Assembly: GCA_003644825.1 (NCBI GenBank)
Contig: QNDJ01000076.1
Location: 1 to 7,010, forward strand
DNA: 7,010 nt
Source of the DNA: B21-G16 sp003644825 [NCBI: Candidatus Zhuqueibacterota bacterium]
Lineage (GTDB): Bacteria > SM23-31 > B21-G16
Direction: 5' to 3'
Shown in pieces: positions 1-3,707 of this stretch. Numbering within the stretch: position 1 is the stretch's first letter; every line of letters starts with the position of its first letter. Below the pieces are notes generated by a model that did no database searches, was not told the DNA's origin, and was given only the letters and a program-made list of their open reading frames with translations. The translations under genes and the position numbers were made by a program.

Positions 1-11
1 ATGCCTGACCT
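1..11. repeat. Truncated copy of the TGCCTGACCT palindrome
   Basis: The first 11 bases, ATGCCTGACCT, are identical to bases 156-166, the last loop base and right arm of the complete hairpin at 142-167. The left arm would lie before the window starts. If the missing part matches, this is a second copy about 155 bp from the first, which makes the palindrome a repeated element and not a one-off hairpin. Confidence 0.55.
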
Positions 12-67
12 ACAGTTCTGGTTATATTATATTCATAGTTCGTGAATAGTTTCCACATAATAAAGAG

Positions 68-94
68 ATTGCTTCGTCCATACGGACTCGCAAT
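68..94. repeat. Imperfect palindrome, GAGATTGCTTCGTCC type
   Basis: ATTGC (68-72) pairs with GCAAT (90-94), and GTCC (76-79) pairs with GGAC (84-87). An internal loop of 3 versus 2 bases separates the two stems, and the terminal loop is ATAC. The surrounding string from GAGATTGCTTCGTC to CTCGCAATGACA resembles, from memory, a dispersed intergenic palindrome seen in several unrelated bacterial genomes and metagenome bins. That resemblance is recall, not a search result. Confidence 0.5.
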
Positions 95-117
95 GACAAT
101 TCAAGTTTTAAACAAGA

Positions 118-1332: not shown

Positions 1333-1941
1333 CTAATCTTTTTTCTTCTTTACGTAATTTACTTTATCTTTCAGATTATTTTTCTCTAATGATGATTTAA
1401 TACCAGTAGAATCTATTGAAGAGGATTTAAGATTATTTGATTGAGAAAAAGAGCTAATTTTGTTTACATTATTCAATCCCTGTGATGTAACTTTAACCGG
1501 TGGAATAGCAATTGGTTGGCCCGCTTTGTTATTAATCACTTTATCACTCACAATATTTTTTTCATTGAACTTACTTTCAACTTTAGAGGTGTTATTCTGA
1601 ATAATTGTGATAACAGAAATCAAAGCAATAACACCTACAAGTGCACCTATAGCTGGTTTCACAGGAAAAGAATTAATGGAAAAAAGTCTTTTATCATTGA
1701 ATTTTTTCACATTATTAAGTTCGCTTTTAAGTCTTTCTCTTAACAGGATTTCAAACCTCGGAGAAGCCTGAACTTTTCTCAGATTTTTCAAATAATTCTT
1801 AATAGTTAAAGTCCTTTTCACAATTAAAGAACAATCATTACAGGATGCTAAATGCTCTTCAATCTCAGCCTTTAAGAATTGTGAAACATCCCCGTCAATA
1901 TAATCTGATATAAAAGATTGAAACTCTTTACAACTGATCAT
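1333..1941 (-). CDS. Zinc-finger (ZAS) transmembrane anti-sigma factor
   Basis: A 202-residue partner of the ECF sigma factor encoded 13 nt upstream. The N-terminal part (about 1-75) is a ZAS-type anti-sigma domain with C4 and the H30-x3-C34-x2-C37 zinc motif; in this family it binds the sigma factor and holds it inactive. Residues about 95-114 are one hydrophobic transmembrane helix. Residues about 116-202 should lie outside the membrane; they are rich in Ser, Asn and Lys, end in four lysines and one aspartate, and match no domain I recognise. I chose ATG at 1941 over the in-frame TTG at 1947 because GGAG (1953-1950) is 8 nt from the ATG but only 2 nt from the TTG. Release of the sigma factor would need proteolysis or a zinc/redox change; which one is not visible here. 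Confidence 0.88.
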   Translation of the reverse strand: MISCKEFQSFISDYIDGDVSQFLKAEIEEHLASCNDCSLIVKRTLTIKNYLKNLRKVQASPRFEILLRERLKSELNNVKKFNDKRLFSINSFPVKPAIGALVGVIALISVITIIQNNTSKVESKFNEKNIVSDKVINNKAGQPIAIPPVKVTSQGLNNVNKISSFSQSNNLKSSSIDSTGIKSSLEKNNLKDKVNYVKKKKD

Positions 1942-1949
1942 AGGCAATT

Positions 1950-1953
1950 CTCC
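1950..1953 (-). promoter_or_regulatory. Ribosome binding site that sets the anti-sigma start
   Basis: GGAG on the minus strand lies just past the sigma-factor stop codon and 8 nt before the ATG at 1941. This spacing favours the ATG and argues against the slightly longer TTG-initiated frame beginning at 1947. The tight 13-nt gap to the sigma stop suggests translational coupling of the pair. Confidence 0.6.
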
Positions 1954-1954
1954 A

Positions 1955-2557
1955 TTATTTTTTCGAATCCTTTAATAATTCACTTAATTTTTCCTGAAGT
2001 TTCAACCTGCCCCGATTCACTCTTGACTTTACTGTTCCTAAAGGGATCTTTGCTATATTACTTATTTCTTCATAAGAAAGTTCCTGAATATCTCTTAAAA
2101 TTATAACTTCTTTAAATTTTTTTGATAAAGAATTAATTGCCTTTTGTATCATTTCATCTTGAATTGAGAGGTCAACTCTCTCTTCAGGTCCTTTTTTCAA
2201 ATCCCGAAGCTCATAGTCTTTATTGTTATATCCTAAATTACTTATGGACAGTAATTTTCTTCTTTTTCTTCTCCGAAGCTCTGTTTTTGCCAGGTTTCCG
2301 GTTATTGTATATATCCAGGTAGAAAATTTCGCTACATTTTTATATGCATCTTTCTTCCTAAATACCCTGAGAAAAGTTTCCTGAACAATATCCTCAGAAT
2401 CTTCAAGGTCACCTAAAAATCGGTAGGCAAAATTAATTAACTGATCTTTATACCTTTTAACAATAAGGTCAAATGCATACAGATCTCCATTCTGAAATCT
2501 CTCTATTAGCTCCTCGTCTGAAGGCGTTAAATCTTCTTTATCTGACTCTGATTTCAT
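1955..2557 (-). CDS. ECF-family RNA polymerase sigma factor (RpoE-like)
   Basis: A 200-residue group 4 (extracytoplasmic function) sigma factor with only regions 2 and 4. Region 2 spans about 27-100, with the core-binding segment DSEDIVQETFLRVF (53-66) and the -10 recognition part around FSTWIYTITGNLAKTELRRR (78-97). A linker covers 101-133. Region 4 spans about 134-188, with a helix-turn-helix at 158-181 (ELSYEEISNIAKIPLGTVKS) that reads the -35 element. The next gene encodes its anti-sigma factor. The ATG has no Shine-Dalgarno sequence, and no other ATG, GTG or TTG lies near the N-terminus, so the start is probably right and translation may be leaderless from the promoter at 2561-2589. The signal it answers and its regulon cannot be read here. 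Confidence 0.95.
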   Translation of the reverse strand: MKSESDKEDLTPSDEELIERFQNGDLYAFDLIVKRYKDQLINFAYRFLGDLEDSEDIVQETFLRVFRKKDAYKNVAKFSTWIYTITGNLAKTELRRRKRRKLLSISNLGYNNKDYELRDLKKGPEERVDLSIQDEMIQKAINSLSKKFKEVIILRDIQELSYEEISNIAKIPLGTVKSRVNRGRLKLQEKLSELLKDSKK

Positions 2558-2560
2558 TTA

Positions 2561-2589
2561 TCTAACAATTATTATAATATTAAAGTTCC
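2561..2589 (-). promoter_or_regulatory. ECF-type autoregulatory promoter of the sigma gene
   Basis: On the minus strand, GGAACTTT (2589-2582) is followed by 15 bases and GTTAGA (2566-2561). This matches the known layout of RpoE-type ECF promoters, GGAACTT with about 16 bases before a GTC/TCTGA-like -10 element. It lies in the 39-bp gap between the holA stop and the sigma ATG. ECF sigma genes commonly activate themselves, so this is probably such a site. The -10 element ends 3 bp before the ATG, placing the expected transcription start at or beside the start codon. A TATAAT also lies in the spacer (minus strand, about 2575-2570), but without a sigma-70 -35 at the right distance. Confidence 0.65.
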
Positions 2590-2596
2590 AATTTTT

Positions 2597-3598
2597 TTAT
2601 TTATTTTGTAATTTACACAAATTGTAAACTAAAACTGTTCCTATAGTTAAATTATTTTGATAACTCCTCTTTGAGTTATAATCAGCTTCAAGGAGAAATT
2701 CAAAGCTTTTCTTTATAGATTCTTCAGAAAAATTCTCTGCCTCTTTAAGATAATTCTTCCAGTAAAATGGAGCCACTCCTATCTCCTTTCGTAAATCATC
2801 TGTATTTTTTTTTAATGACTTCGAAAAAACTATTCTTCCTATAATACTCATATACCACCCAATCATACGGATTATTTTTTGCAAAGGTTCGCCAAGTTCA
2901 ATCATTCTTGAAACTATATAAAGTGCTTTAAGAGTATTTTTTTCTCCAATAGCTCTATTAAGCTCAAAAACGCTAAATTTCCTGGTAGTTCCCACAACAT
3001 TTTCTACATCTTCAACCTCTATTTTATTTCTTTCTCCTATATATAACAGGCATTTATCAATCTCATTTGCTATAGTACGAATATTTAAACCAACACTTTC
3101 GAACATTAACATTACCGCTTCTTCAGATATATTTTTCCCTGATATATACACTCTTTCTTTTATCCAGGTAAGTATGTCTCTTTCATAAAATTTCTTACAT
3201 TCAAAATGACAGGATTTATTCTTAAGTTTTTCAAAAAATTTTATCCCTGTTGGAAGTTTACCAGCCTCAAAAATCAATACAGTAGTTTCATTTGGTGAAT
3301 CTAAATATCTATTTAACAGGCCTATTATCCGGGAATTTAATCTATCACAATCTTTTATAACAACACTCTTATAAGGAGAAAACATTGAGTAAGAAGTAAT
3401 ACAATTATACAGTTCCCCACCTTCAACTTCATCACCATAAAACGTATTTACATTGAAACCTCTTGTTTCTTTCCTAAAACATTTATTCAGAATAAGATTT
3501 ATTGTTTCTTCCCTTAAAAACTCCTCTTCACCAGTTATTAAATATAATGGTTCAAGTTTATTTGAAACAATTTCTTTCAGGCTTTTAATTTTCTTCAT
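2597..3598 (-). CDS. holA: DNA polymerase III delta subunit
   Basis: A 333-residue clamp-loader delta subunit, usual length for the family (about 320-345). In the cytoplasm it opens the beta sliding clamp and helps load it on primed DNA. The N-terminal fold begins with the typical PLYLITGEEEFLREE (17-31). The middle has the conserved KFSVFELNRAIGEK (207-220), and EPLQKIIRMI (237-246) starts the helical C-terminal collar domain. The last helices show the family ending LLEADYNSKRS (302-312) and then LVYNLCKL (323-330). As is normal for delta subunits, there is no Walker A motif. The ATG overlaps the end of the small transporter subunit gene by 14 nt, with a purine-rich AAAGAGA in front, so it is probably cotranscribed with the uppP cluster. 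The ECF promoter follows its stop codon. Confidence 0.93.
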   Translation of the reverse strand: MKKIKSLKEIVSNKLEPLYLITGEEEFLREETINLILNKCFRKETRGFNVNTFYGDEVEGGELYNCITSYSMFSPYKSVVIKDCDRLNSRIIGLLNRYLDSPNETTVLIFEAGKLPTGIKFFEKLKNKSCHFECKKFYERDILTWIKERVYISGKNISEEAVMLMFESVGLNIRTIANEIDKCLLYIGERNKIEVEDVENVVGTTRKFSVFELNRAIGEKNTLKALYIVSRMIELGEPLQKIIRMIGWYMSIIGRIVFSKSLKKNTDDLRKEIGVAPFYWKNYLKEAENFSEESIKKSFEFLLEADYNSKRSYQNNLTIGTVLVYNLCKLQNK

Positions 3599-3707
3599 TC
3601 TCTTTTTTTCTTTTTTCTTTTTTCATAGCAATACCCGCAGAAACAACAAATCCCCCCCATATTATACAACCAAAAATAATAAAACTTACTATAGCAGATG
3701 TTTCCAT
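3585..3707 (-). CDS. MetS-like small subunit of the NSS transporter (40 aa)
   Basis: A 40-residue membrane protein directly behind the NSS transporter; TAA of the transporter and this ATG are separated by one base (TAATATG). It starts METSAIVSFIIFGCIIWGG: a single transmembrane helix at about 5-27 with the WGG motif (17-19) typical of the small subunits that accompany some NSS transporters, such as MetS of the methionine/alanine importer MetPS. The C-terminus (29-40) is highly charged, rich in Lys and Glu. The small subunit is known to be needed for activity of some such transporters; here that role is inferred from sequence and position. AAGG, 9 nt upstream, can serve as ribosome binding site. 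The last 14 nt overlap holA. Codons 17-19 contain a run of seven G, unusual in this AT-rich DNA. Confidence 0.82.
   Translation of the reverse strand: METSAIVSFIIFGCIIWGGFVVSAGIAMKKEKRKKENEEN

What the first reader, a model, noticed from the sequence alone, without database searches (positions are those of the whole stretch)
2555..2589. Autoregulatory ECF promoter with a probably leaderless sigma-factor message
GGAACTTT-N15-GTTAGA on the minus strand closely follows the RpoE-type ECF promoter layout and sits just before the sigma gene. The -10 element ends 3 bp before the ATG, so transcription should begin at or within a base or two of the start codon. There is also no Shine-Dalgarno sequence and no alternative start codon. 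A leaderless, self-activating ECF sigma gene would make its translation different from that of its SD-led anti-sigma partner, which could set the ratio of the two proteins.
Basis: partly seen in the sequence, partly recalled or inferred. Interest (0 to 1): 0.6.

Follow-up and report, generated by a model that had tools for sequence, protein, structure and literature searches.

The report
Self-driven sigma promoter at start codon
A stress-response switch gene carries, right in front of its start codon, a promoter that its own protein very probably recognises, but the spacing suggests that the message made there may begin just past the start codon and so make the switch's inhibitor rather than the switch itself.

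Summary
In detail: minus strand 2589-2561 reads GGAACTT-N16-GTTAGA, three bases before the ATG (2557-2555) of an ECF sigma gene that is followed by a zf-HC2 anti-sigma gene. Conservation says the promoter is real: 3 of 4 orthologs of the window's class and 50 of 71 read from another phylum have the -35 (0.035 and 1.4 expected), and the same -35/-10 pair precedes a BamD-like lipoprotein gene in 7 of 30 loci (0.74 expected for the -35). So "autoregulatory ECF promoter" is well supported. "Leaderless" is not: E. coli sRNA promoters of this type, the measured limits of start-site choice, and (moderately) a conserved step in this family put +1 seven bases after the -10. Here that is the base after the ATG (2554). 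In ten orthologs of the other phylum the nearest start codon lies upstream of predicted +1, at or inside the -10; in one clade mostly with a Shine-Dalgarno in the promoter spacer. I judge it about even that this promoter makes a message that cannot yield full sigma, only anti-sigma (negative feedback), while sigma comes from read-through out of holA. A leaderless self-activating sigma message is the main rival. No 5' ends have been mapped.

The parts
2583..2589 (-). -35 element GGAACTT of the ECF promoter
   Evidence: GGAAC[TC]T before 3 of 4 class orthologs and 50 of 71 orthologs read from another phylum
2567..2582 (-). 16-nt spacer
   Evidence: spacer 15 in 36 and 16 in 14 of 52 orthologous promoters
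2561..2566 (-). -10 element GTTAGA
   Evidence: family consensus GTTNAA
2554..2555 (-). predicted +1 (base 7 after the -10 = 2554, or base 6 = 2555)
   Evidence: E. coli calibration, start-site limits, YR step at bases 6-7 in orthologs; not measured
1955..2557 (-). ECF sigma factor gene (200 aa), ATG at 2557-2555
   Evidence: Pfam Sigma70_r2 and r4_2; TIGR02937 above cutoff
1333..1941 (-). anti-sigma factor gene: N-terminal zf-HC2, then a hydrophobic stretch read by eye as a membrane segment
   Evidence: PF13490; GGAG 8 nt before the ATG
2597..3598 (-). holA (DNA polymerase III delta), ends 39 bp before the sigma ATG; probable source of read-through transcription
   Evidence: TIGR01128; a holA profile hits upstream of the sigma gene in 74 of 75 orthologous loci
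3597..3707 (-). MetS-type small transporter subunit overlapping the holA start (the span is the part tested; the frame runs on past 3597)
   Evidence: PF16951

Best explanation
It is the autoregulatory promoter of a holA-linked, RpoE-like ECF sigma factor, placed so that its start point falls at or just after the sigma start codon. Shown by sequence: the -35/-10 pair, its conservation in two phyla, and the anti-sigma gene downstream. Inferred: the sigma factor itself reads it; +1 is at 2554 (or 2555); the 5' end therefore lacks an intact AUG for sigma; sigma is made from longer messages that read through from the transporter-holA operon; the stress-induced message from this promoter mainly yields the SD-led anti-sigma, a negative feedback that resets the response.
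For: Conservation: 3 of 4 class orthologs against 0.035 expected, 50 of 71 in another phylum against 1.4. GGAACTTTTN{12,14}GGTTRAAA, a pattern written after seeing such promoters, hits 3 of 10 genomes once each, always at the sigma gene, control 0, and 7 of 10 not at all. The motif precedes a BamD-like TPR lipoprotein gene in 7 of 30 loci, all 7 with GTT at spacing 15-16, 0.74 expected for the -35 alone; two of the seven are the loci by which the gene was noticed and a third was among the same pattern hits. Start point: E. coli micA, rybB and micL (sigmaE targets, recalled) begin 34 nt after the first -35 base, with 6 bases between -10 hexamer and +1. Starts more than 1 bp upstream of modal base 7 are rare (PMC5730371, passages). 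In orthologs the YR step at bases 6-7 is the commonest among bases 1-12: 15 of 36 promoters with a start codon behind +1, 9 of 10 of the others. In those ten, all outside the window's phylum, the nearest start codon upstream begins 11-15 bases before predicted +1 and none follows until at least five codons before query residue 18; six of the ten have none up to 15 codons past residue 18. CGA at bases 6-8 recurs in 8 of the ten, in two clades with different reading frames (by eye), which argues against a coding reason. In one clade of 8 rows 6 carry an SD inside the promoter spacer, against 4 of the 41 promoters outside it.
Against: No transcript data. The calibration comes from another phylum and another sigma factor. 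The base-7 signal is only moderate in the larger group: purines are as frequent at base 10 (31 of 36 each) and the YR step reaches 14 of 36 at bases 11-12 and 21 of 36 at bases 13-14. In the window's class base 6 is G, so there is no YR step at 6-7. The -10 to ATG gap is exactly 3 in 3 of 3 promoter-bearing class members, and two of them have C-A at the ATG's A, as a leaderless start would like. The anti-sigma has a 4-base SD only in the window among the four class members; close coupling to sigma's stop (1-13 nt) would hamper anti-sigma translation from a sigma-less message. One class member (L008) lacks the promoter. 36 of 49 promoter-bearing orthologs have a start codon behind +1, where positive feedback is the simple reading. 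Four of the ten (L174, L175, L186, L191) have a later in-frame TTG or ATG near residue 17 or 31 that could give a shortened sigma.
Confidence: 0.47

Rival explanations
1. Leaderless positive feedback: +1 is the A of the ATG (2557), and ribosomes start on a 5'-terminal AUG, giving less sigma per message than SD-led anti-sigma.
For: The gap of 3 nt between -10 and ATG is constant in 3 of 3; C-A at the start in L006 and L007. Precedent: M. tuberculosis sigE promoter P2 is read by SigE polymerase and gives a leaderless mRNA (PMC10027907, passages).
Against: Needs a start at the 4th base after the -10, where the 7th is found in E. coli promoters of this type, 6-9 is the usual range, and the family's YR step is at 6-7. 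Constant spacing within one clade is also expected from common descent: the other two clades keep starts at -14 and -15 just as strictly. No sign of widespread leaderless starts in 294,550 bases of this genome: a TANNNT lies near 18 of 84 starts without SD, against 201 of 1182 internal ATGs.
Confidence: 0.29
2. The promoter is real, but sigma is expressed mainly from upstream read-through and the promoter has several start points, so it gives a mixture of messages with and without the AUG; no strong sign of feedback.
For: holA lies 39 bp upstream and no terminator-like site was found at 1900-3700, though shuffles give only 0.5; 26 of 75 orthologs lack a promoter by my score, and in all 26 holA still stands upstream.
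Against: Conservation of both elements and the YR step at bases 6-7 suggest one preferred start point.
Confidence: 0.2
3. Chance resemblance in AT-rich DNA.
For: Loose pattern at background level genome-wide.
Against: Conservation 3 of 4 and 50 of 71 against 0.035 and 1.4 expected.
Confidence: 0.03

Closest known systems
E. coli RpoE (sigmaE) promoters and regulon
   Same: -35 GGAACTT, spacer 15-16, GT at the start of the -10, anti-sigma gene downstream, BamD-like (YfiO) lipoprotein among likely targets in relatives
   Different: -10 is GTTNAA, not GTCTGA/GTCTTA as in the E. coli promoters read here; sigma is linked to holA; start codon at or upstream of predicted +1
M. tuberculosis sigE promoter P2 (leaderless, SigE-dependent; PMC10027907 and PMC3898074, passages)
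   Same: self-activated ECF promoter whose start coincides with the sigma start codon
   Different: there leaderless 5' ends are mapped; here the -10 is about 3 bp too close, and nothing is mapped
C. glutamicum SigH-dependent rshA promoter (PMC3489674, abstract and passages)
   Same: sigma-dependent promoter that yields anti-sigma only, proposed to shut the response down
   Different: there a separate promoter that drives the anti-sigma gene alone; here it would be the promoter in front of sigma itself, made sigma-less by the start-codon position

Membership tests
ECF sigma factor (group IV sigma-70) | regions 2 and 4 present, no region 3 | tested here: met
   PF04542 32-100 and PF08281 135-187, no region 3 match listed
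ECF sigma factor (group IV sigma-70) | adjacent anti-sigma gene | tested here: met
   PF13490 zf-HC2, ATG 13 nt after the sigma stop
RpoE equivalog (TIGR02939) | score above curated cutoff | tested here: not met
   127.5 bits, cutoff 236.15
SigW equivalog (NF007223, TIGR02948) | score above curated cutoff | tested here: not met
   150.7 of 209 and 130.9 of 243.1
RpoE-type promoter | GGAACTT -35, spacer 15-16 | tested here: met
RpoE-type promoter | -10 as in E. coli (GTCTGA/GTCTTA in micA and rybB) | tested here: not met
   GTTAGA here, GTTNAA in the family
Autoregulated ECF promoter | read by the sigma factor that it precedes | tested here: inconclusive
   conservation at the gene and rarity elsewhere support it; no binding or expression data
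Leaderless mRNA | 5' end at the A of the AUG | tested here: inconclusive
   geometry points 2-3 nt downstream; no 5' end mapped

The most novel reading that the evidence does not exclude
An ECF sigma factor's own promoter stands, in three places on the sigma tree, so that the sigma start codon lies at or upstream of +1; in one clade mostly with the sigma Shine-Dalgarno nested in the promoter spacer and the start codon in the -10. The autoregulatory message then cannot encode full-length sigma and feeds only the anti-sigma: the usual positive loop is turned into a negative one by moving the start codon a few bases.
Probability: 0.4. Interest if true: 0.66.

Novelty: new variant of a known kind. 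Interest (0 to 1): 0.5.

Why it matters
ECF sigma genes are commonly taken as positive feedback loops when a self-type promoter lies upstream (review PMC8103513, passages). If the start codon sits at or before +1, that inference is wrong in sign, and a simple measure, the distance from -10 to start codon, would tell positive from negative loops across uncultured phyla. It also links a conserved holA-sigma-anti-sigma locus to envelope functions through a BamD-like target.

Tried and rejected
Loose genome-wide pattern searches did not reveal a regulon in the window's genome (56 hits, control 62) or its three relatives (10 hits, control 8). GGAACTTTN{13,15}GTTRRA in 20 genomes gave 25 hits against 20 in the control, 7 of the 25 the sigma gene itself. 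The BamD-like target could not be tested in the window's genome (no match at E 1e-8). A widespread leaderless habit of the organism was tested and not seen. A sigma-70-like string in the end of holA (2650-2621) exists, but such strings are no more frequent than in shuffles (6 against 8.1). A paper on sigmaE promoters that I wanted (10.1371/journal.pbio.0040002) is not held, so the calibration rests on E. coli sRNA annotation. Rows dropped:'s spacer and -10 table three loci (L162, L167, L183) were excluded by hand; the 50 of 71 of the same call was counted without that exclusion. 2 of the 73 orthologs of the other phylum (G078, G110) were not fetched. The score threshold leaves out some weak promoters (L009, L166, L187) that the 50 of 71 includes.

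Full report
What is there. The window is a contig of a 2.48 Mb, 493-contig genome of unnamed kinship. On the minus strand lie pgeF, a BacA/UppP gene, an SNF transporter, a MetS-like small subunit overlapping holA, holA, an ECF sigma gene, a zf-HC2 anti-sigma gene and nfo. The finding's string is at 2589-2555 exactly as described.

Is the promoter real? The sigma gene has orthologs at E 1e-40 in 4 of the 6 held genomes of its phylum, each behind holA and before an anti-sigma gene. Three of these four carry GGAACTT-N15/16-GTNNNA directly before the ATG: GTTAGA TAA ATG, GTTATA TAC ATG, GTAGTA TAC ATG; the fourth (L008, GTG start) has none. In a second phylum 73 of 82 genomes have an ortholog at E 1e-55. 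I read 71 of the 73: 50 have GGAAC[TC]T in the 120 nt before the N-terminus, 1.4 expected from dinucleotide shuffles; for the window's class it is 3 of 4 with 0.035 expected. Spacers are 15 (36 of 52) or 16 (14 of 52) and the -10 is GTTNAA (three loci excluded by hand). A strict pattern, written from these promoters, hits 3 of 10 whole genomes once each, always at this gene, and 7 not at all. A holA profile hits upstream of the sigma gene in 74 of 75 loci; the one miss (L175) has only 253 nt of sequence there. A contig labelled Ignavibacteriae (L035) has holA, the sigma gene and, read by eye, GGAACAT-N16-GTTAAA as well.

A second target. Among 25 hits of a looser pattern, sites lay before two related TPR lipoproteins of two genomes. 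A search for that protein in 29 genomes gave 30 loci, the lowest-scoring of which look like ordinary TPR proteins. Seven of the 30 have GGAACTT within 260 nt upstream against 0.74 expected, all seven with GTT at spacing 15-16, as GTTGAA, GTTCAA or GTTACA. Two of the seven are the loci by which the gene was noticed, and a third was among the same pattern hits. The protein scores above the Pfam cutoff for YfiO, the BamD family. This fits an envelope-stress role like that of RpoE. The window's own genome had no match to this protein at the threshold used.

Where does transcription start? In E. coli K-12 the annotated 5' ends of the sRNAs micA, rybB and micL, which I recall as sigmaE targets, lie 34 nt after the first base of the -35 heptamer; for micA and rybB this is the 7th base after the hexamers GTCTGA and GTCTTA. 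For E. coli RNA polymerase the modal start is 7 bp after the -10, and starts more than 2 bp downstream or more than 1 bp upstream of it are rare (PMC5730371, passages). In this family base 7 is a purine in 31 of 36 promoters with a start codon behind it and G in 10 of 10 without, with C before it in 9 of 10. The pyrimidine-purine step at bases 6-7 is the commonest among bases 1-12 in both sets (15 of 36 and 9 of 10). Against this, base 10 is as purine-rich in the larger set (31 of 36), and the step is commoner still at bases 13-14 there (21 of 36), a place near many of the ATGs (all). In the window base 7 is 2554, the first base of codon 2; base 6 is the G of the ATG; the A of the ATG is base 4. 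The same holds for L006 and L007.

What the orthologs show. Of 75 orthologs, 49 pass my promoter score. In 36 a start codon lies behind predicted +1; the ATG is 5 to 15 bases behind it in 35 of them and 32 behind it in one, at times with an AGGA-type SD. No ATG lies 0 to 4 bases behind, though three rows also have a GTG at -1 and one a TTG at +4. In 13 there is no ATG, GTG or TTG between +1 and five codons before query residue 18: the three of the window's class by 3 bases, and ten others whose nearest upstream start codon begins 11-15 bases before +1, at or inside the -10. Of these ten, six have no later start codon up to 15 codons past residue 18, while four (L174, L175, L186, L191) have a TTG or ATG near residue 17 or 31. 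The ten fall in two clades of the other phylum; with the window's class that makes three places on the tree. The well-supported branches force at least 3 changes, gains or losses; the fewest that the tree needs is 8 (quick tree, many weak branches). In one clade of 8 rows, six have an SD inside the promoter spacer, against 4 of the 41 promoters outside it, and the SD is set for a TTG or GTG in the -10: there sigma seems to be translated from messages that come from upstream, across its own promoter. CGA at bases 6-8 recurs in 8 of the ten, in two clades with different codon frames, which fits an initiator rather than a protein constraint (by eye). An anti-sigma ORF was found downstream in 62 of 74 orthologs by its HxxxCxxC motif, at least one of them (L100) doubtful. 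In the second of the two clades I found such an ORF behind all four members without a start codon past +1, in three of them without that motif.

Mechanism. I therefore think that this promoter, once sigma is freed, gives a message that begins at 2554 or 2555, lacks sigma's AUG, and is translated from the anti-sigma SD (GGAG, 8 nt before 1941): a brake. Sigma would come from read-through out of the transporter-holA operon (39 bp gap; no terminator-like site found, but only 0.5 expected in shuffles). The closest precedent for a sigma-dependent, anti-sigma-only promoter is rshA of C. glutamicum (PMC3489674, abstract and passages). Against my reading: no transcript has been mapped; two class members have C-A at the ATG and none has a pyrimidine at base 6; the anti-sigma SD is clear only in the window among the four class members; and constancy of the 3-nt gap could be read as selection for a 5'-AUG, though the other clades keep their own distances just as strictly.

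Literature limits. Searches for leaderless with ECF sigma factor and autoregulation, leaderless mRNA with anti-sigma factor, holA with ECF sigma factor, promoter overlap with start codon and anti-sigma-only feedback were read as listings. I saw no title there on a start codon inside a sigma factor's own -10, but I read only passages of seven papers and the abstract of one of them, and most subscription journals are not held.

Noticed in passing
L197, L198, L199, L203, L204, L207, L209 (upstream of the BamD-like TPR lipoprotein gene): A second conserved target of the same promoter type: GGAACTT-N15/16-GTTGAA or close to it, well upstream of the start codon. In three of them (L203, L204, L209) the gene before it ends like ClpB (by eye and recall, not tested).
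   Followed up: partly
L083, L086, L087, L090 downstream of sigma: Anti-sigma-like ORFs without the HxxxCxxC zinc motif; in L083, L086 and L087 the next ORF looks like an HtrA-type protease (by eye).
   Followed up: no
window 3597-3707, minus: Small MetS-type transporter subunit overlapping the holA start, which ties the SNF transporter and holA into one probable operon.
   Followed up: partly
window 1-34 and 156-189; window 65-97: A 34-nt direct repeat at 71% identity, and between the copies a palindrome-like stretch (ATTGCTTCGTC...GACTCGCAATGAC, by eye; the repeat tool listed no inverted pair) that looks like a dispersed repeat element.
   Followed up: no
L008 upstream of its sigma gene: The ortholog in G003 shows no such promoter and begins with GTG, while holA-sigma-anti-sigma order is kept.
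   Followed up: no
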